Under the pieces are notes generated by a model. The model saw only the letters and a list, made by a program, of their open reading frames with translations, searched no databases and had not been told where the DNA came from. DNA of 64,000 nt, from assembly GCF_007995065.1 (NCBI RefSeq), contig NZ_VOQR01000001.1, positions 3,414,501 to 3,478,500 on the forward strand, read 5' to 3'. Origin of the DNA: Sphingomonas ginsenosidivorax (GTDB taxonomy: Bacteria > Pseudomonadota > Alphaproteobacteria > Sphingomonadales > Sphingomonadaceae). The translations under genes and the position numbers were made by a program. Within the stretch, counting starts at the first letter, position 1; each line of letters starts with the position of its first letter. Below, piece after piece: positions 37,262 to 63,169 of the stretch.

Positions 37262-38155
37262 CTAGATCGCGCCGCCGGTGAGCCGCTGGCAGACCATGTC
37301 GAGCTGGTCGAGCGTCGAATAGCTGATCGTCAGCGTACCGCCCGTCTCGGCATGCGCAACGCGGACCTGCAGGCCCAGCAGGTCCGCGAGCTGGCGTTCG
37401 AGCGCGGCGATGTCCGCGTCTGGGATCCGTGCCTCGGCAGGCCCTCCGGCACGGGCACGCGGTGGCTTGGCCGCCCGCGTCAGCTTCTCGGTGTCGCGCA
37501 CCGACAGACCCTTGGCCACGACCTTGTCCGCCAGCGCCTCGACATCGGGCGCCCCGAGCAGCGCACGCGCATGGCCCATCGACAGCGAACCGTCCATCAC
37601 CTGCGACTGCACGACGTCGGGCAGCTCGAGCAGGCGCAGCAGGTTGGCAACATGGCTGCGCGACTTGTGGACGATCTTGGCGAGCGCCTCCTGCGTATGG
37701 CCGTACTCGCCGGCAAGACGCTGGTAAGCCTGCGCCTCCTCGATCGCGTTGAGATCCTGCCGCTGGATATTTTCGATCAGTGCGATCTCGAGCGTCTCGG
37801 AATCGTCGAAGTCGCGGACGACGACCGGCACCTCGTGCAGCCGCGCGCGCTGTGCCGCACGCCAGCGACGTTCGCCCGCGACGATCTGATAGTCATGGCC
37901 GTGCGGCCGCACGACGATCGGCTGGATCAGCCCACGCGACGCGATCGAGGCGGCGAGCTCGTCGAGCAGCGCGTCGTCGAAATGGCGCCGCGGCTGGTCG
38001 GGATGCGGCGACAGCGAGCTGACCGGCAGCATCCGCACGCCCGATGGCGGCGGTTCGGTGCCGGGCGTGACGGGCGCCTCGCGCGCCATTTCGCCGAGCA
38101 GTGCGTTCAACCCGCGCCCCAGCCCCGGACGGCCGCGCTTCATACCCTCGCTCAT
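37262..38155 (-). CDS. parB: Chromosome partitioning protein ParB
   Basis: A 297-residue ParB. After GRPGLGRGLNALLGEM it has the Sulfiredoxin-like CTPase region (LSPHPDQPRRHFDDALLDEL; GLIQPIVVRP; IVAGERRWRAAQRA), where the GERRxRA motif binds CTP, then the helix-turn-helix KIVHKSRSHVANLLRLLELP and a C-terminal dimer domain. It loads onto parS and slides, forming the origin-proximal complex moved by ParA. It overlaps parA by four bases (ATGA). Candidate parS sites lie 0.8-12 kb upstream. Confidence 0.97.
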   Translation of the reverse strand: MSEGMKRGRPGLGRGLNALLGEMAREAPVTPGTEPPPSGVRMLPVSSLSPHPDQPRRHFDDALLDELAASIASRGLIQPIVVRPHGHDYQIVAGERRWRAAQRARLHEVPVVVRDFDDSETLEIALIENIQRQDLNAIEEAQAYQRLAGEYGHTQEALAKIVHKSRSHVANLLRLLELPDVVQSQVMDGSLSMGHARALLGAPDVEALADKVVAKGLSVRDTEKLTRAAKPPRARAGGPAEARIPDADIAALERQLADLLGLQVRVAHAETGGTLTISYSTLDQLDMVCQRLTGGAI

Positions 38156-38931
38156 GCCGCCTCCGCCGCTGCGGGCAGCCGGACGAGCAGTTCGCGCGCC
38201 AGCGCGATATAGGCCTGCGACCCCGAGCATTTGTAATCGTAGATCAATGCGGGCAGCCCATGGCTCGGCGCTTCCGACAGGCGGACGTTGCGCGGAATGA
38301 CGGTCTCGAACACCACTTTGCCCAGCACGGCCCGCACGTCCGCCGATACCTGGTCGGTGAGGCGGTTGCGGCGATCGTACATGGTCAGCGCGACGCCGAG
38401 GATCGAAAGTCCGGGGTTGAAGCGCTGGCGGATCCGCTCGACCGTGCTGAGCAGCTGCGACAGCCCTTCCAGCGCGAAGAACTCGCACTGGAGCGGCACG
38501 AGCAGCGAATCCGCCGCGACCATCGCATTGATCGTCAGCAGGCCGAGCGACGGCGGGCAGTCGATCAGCACGATGTCCCACTGGCCCCGCGCCGCCTTCA
38601 TCGCGCGATCGAGCCGGTGCGTGCGCGCGTCGTAATCGACGAGTTCGATCTCGGCGCCGGACAGGTCGACAGTCGCCGGCACGACATCGAGCCGCGGCAC
38701 GCGGCTGTGCACGACCGCGTCGTCGATACTGGTCTCGCCCACCAGCACGTCATAGCTCGACCGCTCGCGCGACGAATGCGCGATGCCGAGTCCGGTCGAC
38801 GCGTTGCCCTGCGGGTCGAGATCGATCAGCAGCACGCGCATGCCCGTCGCGGCCAGCGCCGTGGACAGATTGATGGCGCTGGTGGTCTTGCCCACCCCGC
38901 CCTTTTGGTTTGCCACGGCAATGCAGATCAC
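38152..38931 (-). CDS. parA: Chromosome partitioning ATPase ParA (Soj-like)
   Basis: A 259-residue P-loop ATPase. The deviant Walker A KGGVGKTT lies near residue 10, the switch I region is around IDLDPQGNASTGLG, and Walker B is in DIVLIDCPPSLG. Its C-terminus is the standard Soj length, without the N-terminal DNA-binding extension of plasmid ParA. The start is the GTG at 38931 inside a 4-base GTGA overlap with the rsmG stop; an upstream frame to 39012 lies inside rsmG and is rejected. The parA and parB genes are coupled. Confidence 0.97.
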   Translation of the reverse strand: MICIAVANQKGGVGKTTSAINLSTALAATGMRVLLIDLDPQGNASTGLGIAHSSRERSSYDVLVGETSIDDAVVHSRVPRLDVVPATVDLSGAEIELVDYDARTHRLDRAMKAARGQWDIVLIDCPPSLGLLTINAMVAADSLLVPLQCEFFALEGLSQLLSTVERIRQRFNPGLSILGVALTMYDRRNRLTDQVSADVRAVLGKVVFETVIPRNVRLSEAPSHGLPALIYDYKCSGSQAYIALARELLVRLPAAAEAA

Positions 38932-39542
38932 CGGGCGCTTACCTTGTCCAGAACCACGATCGACGACTCCGGGCTCGTGACGCTTTGTTCCACGTGGAAC
39001 ATAAACCGCCAATGTTCGCGCAACGCGGCAAGCTCATCCTCGTCGAGGCGACCTCGCGGAAGGAGCCACCGCGTGTCGGTAGTGGCGCAGTGCGCCGCTG
39101 CGCGCAAAAGGTTTTGCAACGACGCGACCGCACGCGCCGAAATAATCTGCGCCGTCCCCGCCACTTGTTCGATCTTCTTCGCTTCCACGGTGACGCGGTC
39201 GCCGACCCCGAGACGCGCGATACACAGCGACAGGAAGTCGGCCCGCCGCCGTCGCGGTTCGACGAGCACCATCCGTGCCGGGATCACGAGCGCGACCGCG
39301 AGCCCCGGAAAACCACCACCGGTGCCGATGTCGATCCAGCTCGATGGCGTCTCTCCTGCCAGGCCGACCAGCTGGACCGAGTCGACGGCATGGCGCGCCC
39401 AGATCGACTCGATCGTCGAGGGGGCGATCAGATTCTGGTGCGGCGCCTCGGCGACGACCATGTCGAGAAACGCCCCGAGCCGGTCGGTCGCCTCCGTACC
39501 GAACCGCTCCGCGATCCAGGCCTTCGCATCGTCTTCGGTCAT
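38928..39542 (-). CDS. rsmG: 16S rRNA (guanine-527-N7) methyltransferase
   Basis: A 204-residue GidB-family enzyme. [12 protein letters not shown], then [20 protein letters not shown] (SAM motif I) and [15 protein letters not shown] (motif II) are the family signature; loss in other bacteria gives low-level streptomycin resistance. Its ATG overlaps the mnmG stop in ATGA, and its stop overlaps the parA GTG, so mnmG-rsmG-parA-parB is one chain. A parS-like 16-mer is embedded in its 3' end at 38986. Confidence 0.96.
38986..39001. promoter_or_regulatory. parS site 1 (ParB binding)
   Basis: TGTTCCACGTGGAACA is a perfect 16-base palindrome and the standard alphaproteobacterial parS form. It lies inside the 3' end of rsmG, about 55 bases upstream of the parA start. 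Confidence 0.85.
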
Positions 39543-41418: not shown

Positions 41419-41434
41419 TGTTCCACGTGGAACA
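41419..41434. promoter_or_regulatory. parS site 2 (ParB binding)
   Basis: TGTTCCACGTGGAACA, identical to site 1, in the 60-base gap between mnmE and mnmG and ending immediately before the mnmE stop codon. Confidence 0.85.
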
Positions 41435-46426: not shown

Positions 46427-46888
46427 TCAGAACGGCTTCACGATCACCAGCACGACGATCAGCGTCACCGCCAGCGCAGGCACCTCGTTCAACATCCGCA
46501 GCTGCTTGCCCTTGAGCGTCGGCGCACCGCGGGCGAGCTTCTTCGCATAGCCGACCGCCCAACCGTGATAGCCCGACAGGATCAGCACCAGCAGCAGCTT
46601 GAGGTGCAGCCAGCCGAGCCCCGGCGCGCCGTCCGCCAGCCCCAGGTTGAGCGCGAGCGCGATCCCGAGCACCCAGACGACGATCATCGCAGGCGTCAGG
46701 ATGATGCTGCGGATCTTGCCCTCGCGGTCGACCCAGCTCGCGGCCTCGCCCGCGTTGCCGGCGGCCAGCGCCTCCTGGTGATAGACCAGGTAGCGCGGCA
46801 GCATGAACAGCCCCGCCATCCAGAAGATCACGAAGATCAGGTGCGCGGCCTTTACCCAGTCATAGGACGCGCCGAGGAAACCGCTCAT
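46427..46888 (-). CDS. hemJ: HemJ-type protoporphyrinogen IX oxidase
   Basis: A 153-residue membrane protein with four helices (DWVKAAHLIFVIFWMAGLFM, ILTPAMIVVWVLGIALALNL, LHLKLLLVLILSGYHGWAVG, PALAVTLIVVLVIVKPF). The conserved His in AAHLIF and Lys/His in WLHLKLLLV are haem-binding positions of the HemJ family, which oxidises protoporphyrinogen IX late in haem synthesis. It overlaps hemE by four bases in ATGA; linkage of hemE to hemJ supports the role. Confidence 0.93.
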   Translation of the reverse strand: MSGFLGASYDWVKAAHLIFVIFWMAGLFMLPRYLVYHQEALAAGNAGEAASWVDREGKIRSIILTPAMIVVWVLGIALALNLGLADGAPGLGWLHLKLLLVLILSGYHGWAVGYAKKLARGAPTLKGKQLRMLNEVPALAVTLIVVLVIVKPF

Positions 46889-47913
46889 GTAGTGCTCCGT
46901 ACGCGGGCGATCAGCTGTTCGACATGCGCGATCGGCGTGTCGGGCAGGATGCCGTGGCCAAGGTTGAAAATGTGCGGACGATCGACGAACGCCGCAAGGA
47001 TCCGGTCGACCGCCGCATCGAGCTCCTCGCCGCCCGCGATCAGCGCGAGCGGATCGAGATTGCCCTGCACCGGCATGTCGGCGGGCAACGACGCATGCGC
47101 CCAGACCGGATCGACCGTCTCGTCCAGCCCGATCGCATCGACGCCCGTCTCGCGTGCATAGGCGAGCAGCTTGCCCCCTGCCCCCTTCGGGAAGCCGATC
47201 ACCGGCACCCCAGGGCAGCGGTCGTGCAGCGCCGCGACGATCCGCGCGGTCGGCGCGATCACCCAGCGTTCGAACTGGGCGGGCGACAAGGATCCCGACC
47301 AGCTGTCGAACAGCTGCACCGCATCGACCCCTGCCGCGATCTGCTTCGCCAGATAGTCGACGGTACTGTCGGCGATCGCGTCGATGATCGCGCCGAAGCC
47401 GACCGGGTCGCCGTACGCGAACCGCCGGGTCTCGCCCTGGTCCTTGCTGCCCCTGCCCGCCACCATATAGGTCGCGACCGTCCAGGGAGAGCCCGCAAAG
47501 CCCAGGAACGTCGTCGCGGGCGGCAACGCCTCGGCGACGCGCGCCACGGTGCTGTAGACCGGCTCCAGGCGCTCGGGATGGGCATGAAGCCGGTCGAGCG
47601 CATGATCGACGAGCGCAGGCTCGAGCCGCGGCCCCTCGCCCACCCCGAAGCTCAAATCCTGTCCCAGCGCCCAAGGCACCATCAGGATGTCGGAGAACAG
47701 GATCGACCCGTCGAACGCGAACCGGCGGATCGGCTGCAGCGTCACCTCGGCCGCAGCCTCGGGATCGGTCGCGAGCGCCAGGAAGCCGCCCTTGTCCGCC
47801 CGCAGCGCGCGATATTCGGGGAGATAGCGTCCGGCCTGGCGCATCAGCCAGAGCGGCGGCACGGCCTGACGCTCGCCACGGAGCGTCGCGAGGAGGGGCT
47901 TGGGATCGGTCAA
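46885..47913 (-). CDS. hemE: Uroporphyrinogen decarboxylase
   Basis: A 342-residue UroD that removes the four acetate carboxyls of uroporphyrinogen III. Conserved substrate-cleft elements are present: PPLWLMRQAGRYLPEYR near residue 19, FSDILMVPWALGQ near 73, and GNLDPLAL near 285. The start is a TTG at 47913 with GAAGGGG seven bases ahead, unusual but convincing. The DNA immediately upstream is the predicted oriC, exactly as in Caulobacter. Confidence 0.96.
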   Translation of the reverse strand: MTDPKPLLATLRGERQAVPPLWLMRQAGRYLPEYRALRADKGGFLALATDPEAAAEVTLQPIRRFAFDGSILFSDILMVPWALGQDLSFGVGEGPRLEPALVDHALDRLHAHPERLEPVYSTVARVAEALPPATTFLGFAGSPWTVATYMVAGRGSKDQGETRRFAYGDPVGFGAIIDAIADSTVDYLAKQIAAGVDAVQLFDSWSGSLSPAQFERWVIAPTARIVAALHDRCPGVPVIGFPKGAGGKLLAYARETGVDAIGLDETVDPVWAHASLPADMPVQGNLDPLALIAGGEELDAAVDRILAAFVDRPHIFNLGHGILPDTPIAHVEQLIARVRSTT

Positions 47914-48218
47914 CGGGCGTCCCCTTCTTCAATAAAGAAGATTCTAAAAAGGATTGTTGAAGTGGTTGGCAGGTGGATGTCGGGGCTTATGCGGTCATCC
48001 CCGAAATGCCAACAGCTTGACCGTGGCGGCACCGCGGAAACGCCGTGATTCGGATCGGGCGTCCCCGTTATCCACAGGCTGTTGAGCAAAACACTCCCTG
48101 TGTGCGGGGCTGTGGATAGATCGGGACTTTTCCACGGGTCCCGGGTCGCTTGGCGGAGGGGCGGAGTTACGCTAGCCCTTGTGCCCATGTTATCCACAGA
48201 ACTGCCCGGGACCGGCCG
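47914..48218. other. Predicted chromosomal replication origin (oriC)
   Basis: This is the hemE–PPSR(DUF299) gap, the place of the Caulobacter origin. It contains an AT-rich tract (47926-47962: a CTTCTT/AAGAAG hairpin then AAGATTCTAAAAAGGATTG) that would suit unwinding, and four DnaA-box-like 9-mers in 131 bases: TTATCCACA at 48068 and 48190, CTATCCACA reading leftward at 48111, and TTTTCCACG at 48128. A GATTC site of the CcrM/GANTC type is in the AT-rich tract. Genes diverge from it. Origin function is inferred from synteny and these motifs. Confidence 0.82.
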
Positions 48219-49037
48219 ATGATGCGCCTGCATCTCCACCTGCTGTCCGACTCCACCGGCGAGACGCTCGAGAACATCGCCAAGGCGGCGCTCGCGCAAT
48301 ATGACGACGTCGAGACCGTCCGCCATTTCTGGCCGATGGTCCGCACCGAGGCGCATCTCGAACGCATCCTGCAGGAGGTCGCGCAGAACCCCGGGCTCGT
48401 GATCTTCACGCTGGTGAACCCGGCGACGCGGCGGATCCTCGAACAGCGCTGCCTCGCGCTCGGCCTCCCCGCGGTCGCCCCGCTCGATCCGGTCAACGAC
48501 GCGCTGTCGGGGCTGCTCGGCCAGCAGGCCAAGGCCCGGCCGGGCCGCCAGCACGTCCTCGATGCCGCCTATTTCGCGCGCGTCGATGCGATCCAGTGGA
48601 CCATCGCGCATGACGACGGGATCGCCTCGGACGAATGGGAAGAGGCCGACGTCGTGCTCGCGGGCGTATCGCGCTCGTCGAAGACGCCGACCTCGATCTA
48701 TCTCGCCAATCGCGGCTACAAGGCGGCGAACATCCCGATCGTGGTCGAGAGTCCGCCGCCAAACAATCTCTACGGGTTGAAACACCCGCTGGTGGTCGGC
48801 CTCACGACCAGTGCGGACCGGCTGATCCAGGTGCGTCGCAACCGGCTGTTGTCGCTGCACCAGGCGCCCGACACCTCCTATGTCGAGGAGGAAGCGGTGA
48901 TGCGCGAGCTGGCGTTCGCGCGGCGGATGTTCGCGGACAATGGCTGGCCTGTGATCGACGTGACCCGGCGATCGATCGAGGAAACCGCCGCGGCGATCAT
49001 CGCGCTGTGCAACGACCGCCGGGGTGTCACCGCATGA
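48219..49037 (+). CDS. Pyruvate, phosphate dikinase regulatory-type protein (PPSR/DUF299)
   Basis: A 272-residue DUF299 protein. LHLLSDSTGETLENIAKAAL opens the fold; GVSRSSKTPTSIYLA near residue 148 is the P-loop of the ADP-dependent kinase/Pi-dependent phosphorylase that switches PPDK or PEP synthase. ATG 48219 and ATG 48222 are adjacent candidates, with no clear Shine-Dalgarno. It is the first plus-strand gene right of the origin and overlaps maf by four bases (ATGA). Confidence 0.93.
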   Translation: MMRLHLHLLSDSTGETLENIAKAALAQYDDVETVRHFWPMVRTEAHLERILQEVAQNPGLVIFTLVNPATRRILEQRCLALGLPAVAPLDPVNDALSGLLGQQAKARPGRQHVLDAAYFARVDAIQWTIAHDDGIASDEWEEADVVLAGVSRSSKTPTSIYLANRGYKAANIPIVVESPPPNNLYGLKHPLVVGLTTSADRLIQVRRNRLLSLHQAPDTSYVEEEAVMRELAFARRMFADNGWPVIDVTRRSIEETAAAIIALCNDRRGVTA

Positions 49038-49670: not shown

Positions 49671-50483
49671 ATGACCAAAGCCTATGCCGAAGTGATCGGT
49701 GACCCGATCGCGCAATCCAAGTCGCCGATCATCCACGGCTTCTGGCTCGACGCGCTCAGGATCGATGCCGAGTATCGCCGCGCACACGTGACCGCCGACG
49801 CCCTCCCCGCCTATTTCGAGAGCCGCAGCGCCGATCCCGACTGGCGCGGCTGCAACGTCACGATGCCGCACAAGCTGGCTGCGCTCGATCATGTGACCGA
49901 TCCCGGCGATGTCCGCGGCACGATCGGTGCGATCAACACGGTGTTTCGCGGCAAGGACGGCGCGATGATCGGGACCAACACCGACGCCGCGGGGTTCTGG
50001 GCGCCGATCGACGATCTCGATATCGCGGGGCAGCCGGTGACGGTGATCGGCGCCGGCGGCGCGGCGCGCGCGGTGCTGTTCGCGCTGTCGCGGATGGGGG
50101 TCGGTCCGGTGACGATCCTCAACCGCAATCCGTTGAAAGGTGCAGCGCTGCTGGCGCTGTTCAAGCTGAAGGGCCAGGCGTTGCCACTGGCTCCCGCGGC
50201 CCCGCCCTCGCGGTTGCTGGTCAACACCAGCGTACTCGGCATGGCTGGCCAACCGCCGCTCGATCTCGATCTGGGCGCACTGGACGATGACAGTCTCGTC
50301 TACGACATCGTCTACTCGCCGCTGGAAACGGGCCTGCTCAAGGCTGCGCGGAAGCGGAACCTCGAGACCGTCGACGGGCTGGAGATGCTCATCGCGCAGG
50401 CGGCCGTCGCGTTCGAGATATTGTTCCACGTGGAACCTCCGCAGGATCGCGACGAGGACTTGCGGGCGCTGCTGACCGCATGA
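49671..50483 (+). CDS. aroE: Shikimate 5-dehydrogenase
   Basis: A 270-residue NADP-dependent shikimate dehydrogenase. Substrate site: [17 protein letters not shown] near residue 10 and [14 protein letters not shown] with the catalytic Lys near 66. NADP site: [10 protein letters not shown] and [17 protein letters not shown], then ILNRNP. GGAACG precedes the ATG. It overlaps coaE by four bases. A 15/16 parS-like sequence lies in its last codons (50422). Confidence 0.96.
50422..50437. promoter_or_regulatory. parS site 3 (one mismatch)
   Basis: TGTTCCACGTGGAACC differs from sites 1 and 2 only at the last base. It is inside the 3' end of aroE, 2.2 kb on the other side of the predicted origin. Confidence 0.7.
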
Positions 50484-60148: not shown

Positions 60149-61231
60149 TCAATGCGGGGGAATACGCGTCGCATCGGCGACGATCCGGATCAGCGACGGC
60201 CGGACGAGCGGCATCAGCCATGTCGCCCGGCTGTCCTCGGCGATACGGCGGACGAGGCCGGCGACTCCGATCGGGCGGGCGAGCCGACCCGCGAACCCGA
60301 CCTGCCAGTCCGCGGCGCCCTGTGCGCCGTTCCGCTGATAGGCAGCGGCCGCGGAGACACCGCTCGCCAGCGCGATCCCCATGCCTTCGCCCGCGAGCGA
60401 CGGAATGACGCCAGCCTGGTCGCCGAGCCGGAACAGCCCCGGCTCCCCGCTGCGCACGCGCCAGCCATAGGGGACGTTGGCGATCGCATCGACGGGCGCC
60501 TCGATCCGCGCGATCCAGTCGCCGAGCGCGGGCAGGTCCCGGCCGAGCGCGTCGAGCAGCTGTCGCGGGGTTCCCGCCGCCTGCAGCCTCGAGCGATGTA
60601 CCGCCAGGCACAGGTTCGCGCTGCCATCCTCCTGCAGCGCGAGCCCGGCATAGCCGCGATCGAACAGGTGCAGTTCGATCTGGCCGGCGAGCGACCTGGC
60701 GAGGGCAGGGGACGGCACGATCCGGACGCGGAGGCCCAGCGTCGGATCGGATCCGCGCGCGCTTTCCGGTCGCGCGAGTCCGCGGATGTCGTGCTTGCCG
60801 CTCGCGAGGAACAGCGCATCGGTGGCGAGCGTCGCGCCGTCGGCGGTGCGCACCGTGCGATCGTCGATCTCGCGTACCGTGACGCCGCGCTCGACCCCGG
60901 CGCCGAGCCGTACCGCCTCGGCGAGCAGCACCGTGTCGAGCCGGTGGCGCGACACCGAGAGCGCGGCGTGCGGCAGCGCCGCCTCGGCCCGCCGGCTCCC
61001 CGCGAACAGCCGTACCCGCGTCACGCGTGCCGGATTGAGCCGGTCGGGGTCGATCCCGAGCCCGGCCAGCGTCTCCAGCGACCGCCAGCTGAGGAAGCCG
61101 CCGCACAGCGCATCGCCCGTCTCGCGCGATCGTTCGAGCAGCGTGTGTGGCACGCCGGCGCGCGCGAGCCCGATCGCCGTCGCGGCCCCCGCGGGTCCGC
61201 CGCCGACGATCAGCGCAGATGTTCGACGCAT
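60149..61231 (-). CDS. FAD-dependent oxidoreductase of the type III polyketide operon
   Basis: A 360-residue flavoprotein. The Rossmann motif ALIVGGGPAGAATAIGLARA is at residues 6-25, a GDALCGGFLS segment follows, and LGDQAGVIPSLAGEGMGIAL is the second FAD-binding GD motif of the group I monooxygenase / geranylgeranyl-reductase-like family. It could hydroxylate or reduce the polyketide product. Start ATG 61231 overlaps the methyltransferase gene by 22 bases, completing a three-gene chain. This matches the SrsC position of the Streptomyces phenolic-lipid operon, though it is not a clear SrsC orthologue. Confidence 0.88.
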   Translation of the reverse strand: MRRTSALIVGGGPAGAATAIGLARAGVPHTLLERSRETGDALCGGFLSWRSLETLAGLGIDPDRLNPARVTRVRLFAGSRRAEAALPHAALSVSRHRLDTVLLAEAVRLGAGVERGVTVREIDDRTVRTADGATLATDALFLASGKHDIRGLARPESARGSDPTLGLRVRIVPSPALARSLAGQIELHLFDRGYAGLALQEDGSANLCLAVHRSRLQAAGTPRQLLDALGRDLPALGDWIARIEAPVDAIANVPYGWRVRSGEPGLFRLGDQAGVIPSLAGEGMGIALASGVSAAAAYQRNGAQGAADWQVGFAGRLARPIGVAGLVRRIAEDSRATWLMPLVRPSLIRIVADATRIPPH

Positions 61232-63007: not shown

Positions 63008-63169
63008 TCAATGACGGCAGGCGTCGTCGATCCGCTCATGCCCCAGCGCGTATTTCTCGTCGATCAGCGCCATGCCCTGCCCGACATAGGCCGCGATCAC
63101 ATGCTCGCCGGACTCCTCCAGCGCGCGACACGCATCGTTCAACATCGAATAGATCAGCTGGGCATTCAT
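63008..63169 (-). CDS. Small hypothetical protein (53 residues)
   Basis: A 53-residue acidic helical protein (MNAQLIYSMLNDACRALEES, then GEHVIAAYVGQGMALIDEKY, ending ALGHERIDDACRH) preceded by GGAG seven bases ahead of ATG 63169. Unlike shadow frames it has balanced codon use and charge, and is probably real. It lies 59 bases upstream of the PKS operon on the same strand. The function is unknown. Confidence 0.6.
   Translation of the reverse strand: MNAQLIYSMLNDACRALEESGEHVIAAYVGQGMALIDEKYALGHERIDDACRH

What the first reader, a model, noticed from the sequence alone, without database searches (positions are those of the whole stretch)
47914..48218. Probable chromosomal origin between hemE and the PPSR gene
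The gap holds four DnaA-box-like 9-mers (48068, 48111, 48128, 48190), an AT-rich tract (47926-47962) and divergent flanking genes. The gene order hemE–gap–DUF299 is that of the Caulobacter origin, and the parAB/parS block lies 9 kb away.
Basis: partly seen in the sequence, partly recalled or inferred. Interest (0 to 1): 0.75.

Follow-up and report, generated by a model that had tools for sequence, protein, structure and literature searches.

The report
Chromosome replication origin of a Sphingomonas
This short gap between two genes is almost certainly where a Sphingomonas-like bacterium starts copying its chromosome; the location was expected, but the stretch where the strands probably open carries an every-third-base G pattern that differs from the textbook motif, as does the initiator protein residue that would read it.

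Summary
Observation and interpretation both hold. Of only 4 exact DnaA boxes (TTATCCACA) in the 4.14 Mb genome, 2 lie in this 305-bp gap. The only three parS sites of the type searched flank it. Polarity of the KOPS-like octamer GGGCAGGG flips near here and again at a dif-like site 1.84/2.12 Mb away. All 80 related loci fetched keep at least one DnaA-box-like site in the same gap. Against: GC skew is messy, with its sampled minimum about 0.44 Mb away, and the pooled KOPS switch sits 9-11 kb to the PPSR side. The location is expected: PMC4741004 says hemE-side origins are predicted for most Sphingomonadaceae.

Not in the finding: beside the AT-rich tract is a five-unit array, TTG TTG AAG TGG TTG. 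Its third-position G is kept in at least 4 of 5 units in 47 of 47 distinct rows. Its geometry is that of the B. subtilis DnaA-trio element, without the conserved middle A. The DnaA residue that reads that A (Asn187) is Tyr/Phe in 120 of 120 listed DnaAs (own included) and Tyr in 9 of 9 other alphaproteobacteria. I infer a G-keyed variant of origin unwinding; untested.

The parts
46885..47913 (-). hemE, uroporphyrinogen decarboxylase (left flank)
   Evidence: PF01208, E 2.8e-112
47914..48218 (.). oriC gap between the divergent genes hemE and PPSR
47924..47963 (.). AT-rich tract, presumed duplex unwinding element
   Evidence: 73% AT in the 30-base windows at 47924 and 47934; aligned in relatives; C nearly absent on the + strand at 47935-47969, mean 0.046 against 0.278 over the gap
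47954..47968 (+). DnaA-trio-like array TTG TTG AAG TGG TTG, G every third base
   Evidence: G at 47956/59/62/65/68 in 1.00/0.98/0.90/0.95/1.00 of 61 distinct rows; at least 4 of 5 G in 47 of 47 distinct rows; column-permutation frequency 0.001
47972..47980 (-). weak DnaA-box-like site (ACATCCACC, 3 mismatches) beside the array; TTATCCACG in L126, L127 (by spacing) and L172
48009..48021 (+). strongly conserved block CCAACAGCTTGAC; IHF-like on the - strand (48010-48022) with 2 mismatches
   Evidence: pattern CMACANNTTGAC in 74 of 79 gaps, 2 matches outside on the + strand; columns
47940..47944 (.). GANTC (CcrM-type) site
48047..48051 (.). GANTC (CcrM-type) site in the stretch where relatives concentrate them
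48068..48076 (+). DnaA box B1, TTATCCACA
48111..48119 (-). DnaA box B3, CTATCCACA
   Evidence: same spacing in many relatives
48128..48136 (+). DnaA box B4, TTTTCCACG (2 mismatches); TTATCCACG in close relatives
48190..48198 (+). DnaA box B5, TTATCCACA
48149..48177 (+). conserved CTTGGC-N17-CTAGCC, probable PPSR promoter
   Evidence: conservation; the promoter reading is inference
48219..49037 (+). PPSR / DUF299 (COG1806) gene (right flank)
   Evidence: PF03618, E 1.5e-90, on ORF 48150-49037
38986..39001 (.). parS
41419..41434 (.). parS
50422..50437 (.). parS on the PPSR side (inner 14 bases identical to the other two)
38152..39012 (-). parA
   Evidence: PF13614, E 1.7e-64
37262..38581 (-). 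parB (ORF starts too far upstream, overlapping parA)
   Evidence: PF02195 and PF17762

Best explanation
Window 47914-48218 is oriC of the 3.96-Mb chromosome of a Sphingomonas-like bacterium. DnaA binds the high-affinity boxes B1, B3 and B5 (48068-48198). With help from an IHF-like bend at 48010-48022 it is delivered to a weak leftward box at 47972-47980. From there it polymerises onto the + strand through the five G-keyed trios at 47954-47968 and opens the AT-rich tract next to hemE. Replication runs both ways to a dif-like site at C1:1,339,951, while ParB loads on the three flanking parS sites. Shown by sequence: position, boxes, parS-like sites, polarity, conservation. Inferred: organism name, DnaA loading order, IHF bending, ParB loading and the unwinding role of the trios. 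The confidence below is for the origin, not for the trio step.
For: 2 of the genome's 4 exact boxes are here. The only 3 matches to the parS 14-mer GTTCCACGTGGAAC with up to 1 mismatch are in the window. KOPS-like octamers: 15 of 213 misoriented for this origin, with the opposite switch between 1,335,012 and 1,361,571 bracketing the dif-like site. 80 of 80 loci have at least one box and 72 of 80 at least two (at most 1 mismatch) in the same gap. In the 601 bases before the PPSR match: at least one box in 19 of 20 Sphingomonadales and 18 of 20 other alphaproteobacteria (no chance control was run for these). Array conservation. Published hemE-side origin for Sphingopyxis, and predicted for most Sphingomonadaceae in DoriC (PMC4741004, passages).
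Against: The cumulative GC-skew minimum of the sampled chromosome is at about 3.02 Mb, not here. The pooled KOPS change-point of the window plus 10 relatives is +9 to +11 kb on the PPSR side, 33 of 138 sites misoriented. In one relative (G018) the only parS 14-mer lies about 45 kb from the gap, in another (G022) three of four copies lie on other contigs, and G024 has none. The dif-like site has 3 mismatches to a recalled pattern, and five other sites in the genome match as well. The IHF-like site has 2 mismatches. The box beside the trios has 3 mismatches here and 4 or more in 28 of 47 distinct rows. No functional data.
Confidence: 0.94

Rival explanations
1. The true origin lies about 10 kb to the right (window 57-59 kb), where KOPS polarity and the local cumulative skew switch; the gap is only a DnaA-regulated promoter.
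For: Pooled KOPS change-point +9 to +11 kb; the window's cumulative skew is lowest at about 58 kb.
Against: That stretch is a gene for a transglycosylase/transpeptidase (PF00912/PF00905); there is no DnaA box with at most 1 mismatch right of 51408 in the window; few independent KOPS sites near the origin, several at similar offsets in several relatives and so probably shared by descent.
Confidence: 0.04
2. The origin is elsewhere: at the skew minimum near 3.02 Mb, at the second box cluster at C1:3.3195 Mb, or next to dnaA.
For: Skew minimum at about 3.02 Mb; a second cluster of three boxes with at most 1 mismatch at 3319517-3319754; dnaA at 724 kb.
Against: No exact box and no parS 14-mer lies within 100 kb of any of the three; KOPS fit far worse at 3.024 Mb and at dnaA, 40 and 63 of 213 misoriented against 15 (the 3.3195-Mb place was not scored); four ORFs beside the 3.3195-Mb cluster gave no replication family.
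Confidence: 0.02
3. The G-every-third-base array is not an initiator site but a by-product of a purine-rich, C-poor strand or a hemE promoter element.
For: The adjoining strand is C-poor; the box beside it is degenerate in most rows; 30 of 40 other alphaproteobacterial upstream stretches show no run of 6 or more.
Against: The conservation is periodic: G at least 0.90 at five positions three apart, permutation frequency 0.001. In the 40 stretches, runs of 6 or more in the same geometry occur in 10, against a shuffle mean of 1.21 (maximum 4 in 100), 4 on the other side of the box, and at most 3 for any other base.
Confidence: 0.33

Closest known systems
Caulobacter crescentus Cori (hemE / COG1806 origin)
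   Same: Same flanking genes, several DnaA boxes, AT-rich region, GANTC sites (PMC1914354 and PMC3973325, passages).
   Different: Cori has five CtrA sites (PMC1914354, passage); no exact TTAA-N7-TTAA occurs in the whole window.
Sphingopyxis granuli TFA oriC
   Same: Near hemE, with conserved DnaA boxes and a putative DUE (PMC4741004, passages).
   Different: Different genus; in the passages that I read no trio array is described; its supplementary alignment was not seen.
Bacillus subtilis basal unwinding system (BUS, DnaA-trios 3'-GAT-5')
   Same: Order box, short spacer, trinucleotide repeats and AT-rich DNA; same strand polarity; guanine kept; DnaA Glu228 conserved and Arg202 replaced by Lys.
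   Different: Middle base T 140, A 47, G 46, C 2 of 235 instead of A; Asn187 replaced by Tyr/Phe; adjacent box weak.

Membership tests
Alphaproteobacterial hemE-COG1806 chromosomal origin | Intergenic gap between hemE and COG1806/DUF299 | tested here: met
Alphaproteobacterial hemE-COG1806 chromosomal origin | Cluster of DnaA boxes, rare elsewhere in the genome | tested here: met
Alphaproteobacterial hemE-COG1806 chromosomal origin | AT content above the genome average in an unwinding tract | tested here: met
Alphaproteobacterial hemE-COG1806 chromosomal origin | Position at the replichore boundary | tested here: met
   KOPS polarity 15 of 213 misoriented, with the caveat that the best change-point is 7-12 kb to the right; GC skew alone inconclusive
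Alphaproteobacterial hemE-COG1806 chromosomal origin | IHF binding site | tested here: inconclusive
   Conserved block matches WATCAANNNNTTR with 2 mismatches
Alphaproteobacterial hemE-COG1806 chromosomal origin | Replication starts here in vivo | not testable with these tools
   needs marker-frequency data
Caulobacter Cori subtype | CtrA sites TTAA-N7-TTAA | tested here: not met
   0 exact matches in the window; 2 of 40 other alphaproteobacterial upstream stretches have one; looser half-sites not searched
BUS as defined by the PMC8287927 search rules | At least three consecutive trios with middle A (NAN) | tested here: not met
   In the phase of the array the window middles are T T A G T; 2 of 47 distinct rows have three consecutive middle A; the published program was not run
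BUS as defined by the PMC8287927 search rules | DnaA box with at most 2 mismatches, 0-16 bp from the trios | tested here: not met
   3 mismatches in the window, 3-bp spacer; at most 2 mismatches in 7 of 47 distinct rows
BUS as defined by the PMC8287927 search rules | DnaA- and trio-dependent strand separation | not testable with these tools
   biochemical assay

The most novel reading that the evidence does not exclude
Alphaproteobacterial origins use a re-keyed DnaA-trio. The guanine of each trio is the conserved letter and the middle base is free (T, G or A). In step, DnaA's middle-base reader (Asn187 in B. subtilis) has become an aromatic residue that could stack on any base, while the guanine contacts (Lys at 202, Glu at 228) are kept. 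This would be a co-evolved second code for origin opening, which searches for middle-A trios would miss.
Probability: 0.36. Interest if true: 0.72.

Novelty: new member of a known kind. Interest (0 to 1): 0.42.

Why it matters
The origin itself is where comparative genomics predicts it, so it is mainly a firm annotation; it shows that KOPS polarity and parS can locate an origin when GC skew fails. [quoted passage not shown] It also makes the nucleobase-capture model testable through a natural substitution at Asn187.

Tried and rejected
GC skew as sole arbiter: ambiguous; half of the chromosome was sampled, not all. Second box cluster at C1:3.3195 Mb: four neighbouring ORFs tested, three without a Pfam family, one with Schlafen/AAA domains. 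GANTC enrichment as a special feature of this origin: relatives average 5.23 per 320 bp in this gap against 1.14 in shuffles and 0.68 in the surrounding sequence (79 of 80 loci; L169 dropped, too little upstream DNA), but the window's own gap has only 2, and 7% of own-chromosome windows reach 2. GANTC in Caulobacter origins is already in print, and the authors found the DNA-content profile of cells lacking ccrM in minimal medium similar to wild type (PMC3973325, passage). Other intergenic regions were not used as a control, so enrichment beyond ordinary intergenic DNA is not shown. CtrA sites: none exact.

Rows dropped: the alignments left out 9 of 81 gap sequences (L132, L136, L154, L158, L159, L160, L162, L169, L170) because the automatic hemE boundary was wrong or the gap unusually long. 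One search used 37 of 81 chosen by hand. Searches took 20 of the 60 order-level and 20 of the 37 hit-bearing (of 57 searched) class-level genomes, own genome counted in the 60 and the 37; I chose them by hand, mostly from the better-scoring hits. Searches took 10 of 24 genomes. One search took the DnaA of 9 genomes picked from those with array candidates, so these 9 are not a blind sample. In one search, several of the 10 runs (L237, L249, L275) look doubtful and may be chance.

Not pursued: structure prediction of DnaA with the trio strand; the two other exact boxes in the genome (L002, L003) beyond a Pfam scan of two ORFs beside the first, which found nothing; the second contig C2.

Changed on checking: the probability of the novel case went from 0.40 to 0.36, because the PMC8287927 survey already covered Proteobacteria of all five classes with the middle-A rule, and because Glu183, a second contact of the middle A in B. 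subtilis, is kept in the relatives printed.

Full report
What is in the sequence. The gap 47914-48218 lies between hemE (leftward) and the PPSR/DUF299 gene (rightward). It holds two exact DnaA boxes (48068, 48190), one with one mismatch (48111, minus strand) and one with two (48128). An AT-rich tract follows the hemE start (73% AT in 30-base windows). The organism is not told; I call it Sphingomonas-like because the PPSR protein is 94-96% identical to the nearest named Sphingomonas loci and DnaA 90% identical to that of Sphingomonas sp. R86521.

Is it more than chance? The exact 9-mer occurs 4 times in the 4,135,604-base genome and twice here; the reversed control pattern occurs 20 times. In 1.964 Mb of sampled chromosome, 72 sites with at most one mismatch were found, and three within 305 bp only at this gap and at C1:3319517-3319754. 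The window as a whole is not enriched (5 sites, 2.91 expected); the clustering is what stands out.

Chromosome-scale tests. The window is C1:3414501-3478500 of a 3,958,997-base contig. The KOPS-like octamer GGGCAGGG (name and motif recalled, not from a call) is far more regular: with the terminus fixed at the dif-like site, 15 of 213 sampled sites are misoriented if the origin is the gap, 14 at the best grid points (3.470 and 3.475 Mb), 40 at 3.024 Mb, 63 at dnaA. The opposite switch lies between 1,335,012 and 1,361,571 and brackets the match at 1,339,951 to a recalled dif pattern, which has 3 mismatches (five other 3-mismatch matches occur elsewhere in the genome). The two arms are then 1.84 and 2.12 Mb. 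The only three matches in the genome to the parS 14-mer GTTCCACGTGGAAC, with up to one mismatch allowed, are at window 38987, 41420 and 50423, on both sides of the gap; more divergent parS forms were not searched genome-wide. Twenty-three of 24 relatives tested carry the exact 14-mer, 1-4 copies each. In 22 of the 23 at least one copy lies within about 13 kb of the PPSR start (my arithmetic); in G018 the only copy is about 45 kb away, in G022 three of four copies lie on other contigs, and G024 has none.

A result against a perfect fit. In the window the octamer keeps its leftward sense up to 55043 and turns at 60703, with one stray at 63075. Pooled over the window and 10 relatives, the best change-point is 9-11 kb to the PPSR side, with 33 of 138 sites misoriented. 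In the window that stretch is coding, for a transglycosylase/transpeptidase, without DnaA boxes of at most one mismatch. I read this as sparse, partly inherited sites near the origin, but it is unexplained.

Relatives. Of 80 loci fetched by the PPSR protein (nearly all titled Sphingomonas or Sphingomonadales), 80 have at least one and 72 at least two boxes with at most one mismatch in the 330 bases before plus 12 bases into the PPSR match; 61 have at least one exact box; 11 of 80 have any exact box in the rest of the locus. The boxes recur in five slots, in the window's frame at -163(+), -151(-), -120(-), -103(+), -41(+) counted from 12 bases inside PPSR; offsets shift between lineages while the spacing is largely kept. 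The window has lost the second. In 601 bases before the PPSR match of 20 Sphingomonadales and 20 other alphaproteobacteria, 19 and 18 have at least one box, 14 and 13 at least two (no shuffle control, and some of these genomes are AT-rich).

The unwinding side. MAFFT alignments of 37 of 81 gaps (read by eye) and 72 of 81 (counts) show, from hemE rightward: the AT tract with almost no C on the + strand; a five-unit array TTG TTG AAG TGG TTG at 47954-47968; a weak box-like site on the minus strand at 47972-47980 (TTATCCACG in L126, L127, L172); a block CCAACAGCTTGAC that resembles an IHF site with two mismatches (present as CMACANNTTGAC in 74 of 79 gaps); then the strong boxes and a probable PPSR promoter. 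In the array the last base of each unit is G in 1.00, 0.98, 0.90, 0.95 and 1.00 of 61 distinct rows, with no alignment gaps there, while the other two bases vary. Permuting alignment columns gives five such columns three apart (G or C) in 0.001 of 20,000 trials. At least four of five G are kept in 47 of 47 distinct rows and all five in 38; the middle base is T 140, A 47, G 46, C 2.

Comparison with the B. subtilis system. There, box, spacer and trios (3'-GAT-5') direct DnaA onto one strand; the middle A contacts Asn187 and Glu183 and the G contacts Arg202 and Glu228; changing the middle A to G or T slows strand separation and initiation (PMC8287927, PMC10721633, PMC6669920; passages). Here strand, order and polarity agree but the conserved letter is G rather than A. 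By the published search rules (at least three NAN units; box with at most two mismatches) the array fails, though I did not run that program. DnaA of this genome aligns to chain 8btg_A (E 3e-92), which I take to be B. subtilis because its residues 187, 190, 193, 202 and 228 are those named in PMC10721633. In a 131-sequence alignment residue 187 is Tyr/Phe in 120 of 120 listed DnaAs (51/69, the own one included) and Tyr in 9 of 9 other alphaproteobacterial DnaAs, residue 202 is Lys and 228 is Glu in all 129, while the chains taken as B. subtilis and T. maritima have Asn at 187. The 120 are the top of 8000 matches and all close relatives, so they count as few independent events. Against re-keying, Glu183 is kept in all 12 alphaproteobacterial rows that one search printed.

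Does the pattern reach further? In the 40 upstream stretches, runs of six or more G-keyed trios on the correct side of a box with at most two mismatches occur in 10, against 1.21 on average and at most 4 in 100 shuffles, 4 on the wrong side, and at most 3 for any other base; runs of five or more occur in 18, against 4.50 (at most 9) in shuffles and 7 on the wrong side. So 30 of 40 lack a run of six; this rule would also miss the window's own array, whose box has three mismatches. The clearest are L265, L271, L272 and L251, with a box of at most one mismatch and spacers of 0-5 bp; L237, L273 and L275 have similarly short spacers but boxes with two mismatches. The middle base over the 10 is G 28, T 23, A 13, C 5. 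This is suggestive, not proof; a few of the 10 look like chance.

What is in print. PMC4741004 (passages) places oriC near hemE in Sphingopyxis and says the same is predicted for most Sphingomonadaceae in DoriC; PMC1914354 (passages) summarises Cori. The PMC8287927 survey (passages) covered all five classes of Proteobacteria with the middle-A rule and did not find trios in 15% of genomes; I could not see which elements it assigned to alphaproteobacteria, so it may have placed trios elsewhere in these origins. PMC10721633 says that the chemical and physical properties of the contact residues are generally maintained in homologs; alphaproteobacteria are not named in the passages I saw. Searches for DnaA-trio (20 of 43 listed), with Caulobacter (one listed), with Alphaproteobacteria/oriC (10 of 137 listed), and for basal unwinding system with Caulobacter (1) listed no paper whose title or abstract start describes alphaproteobacterial trios; I read passages of only some of these papers, and no supplementary files.

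Verdict. The gap is oriC (0.94). It works most likely as a box cluster feeding a BUS-like opening element; that the element is a G-keyed variant matched to an aromatic residue in DnaA is my inference (about 0.36).

Noticed in passing
G000:C1:3319405-3319754 (L086:1405-1754): A second cluster of DnaA-box-like sites in a lower-GC stretch of the chromosome; of four neighbouring ORFs three gave no Pfam family and one carries Schlafen AlbA_2 and AAA domains.
   Followed up: partly
window 49-61 kb: KOPS-like polarity turns about 7-12 kb to the right of the DnaA-box gap, in the window and in the pool with 10 relatives.
   Followed up: partly
G000:C1 whole contig (sampled): GC skew is broken into several sign changes inside each arm although GGGCAGGG polarity is nearly regular.
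   Followed up: no
L157, L160, L162, L167, L171, L175, L178, L179, L181, L183 (upstream of PPSR): Ten loci including S. sanguinis, S. paucimobilis and S. zeae have 11 GANTC sites in the 320 bp before the PPSR match, about ten times the mean shuffle expectation.
   Followed up: partly
G000:C1:724210: dnaA lies about 1.2 Mb from the origin, not beside it.
   Followed up: no
G000:C1:3360001-3380000 (L087): Extreme local GC skew of -0.195 over 20 kb, about twice the next largest in the sample.
   Followed up: no
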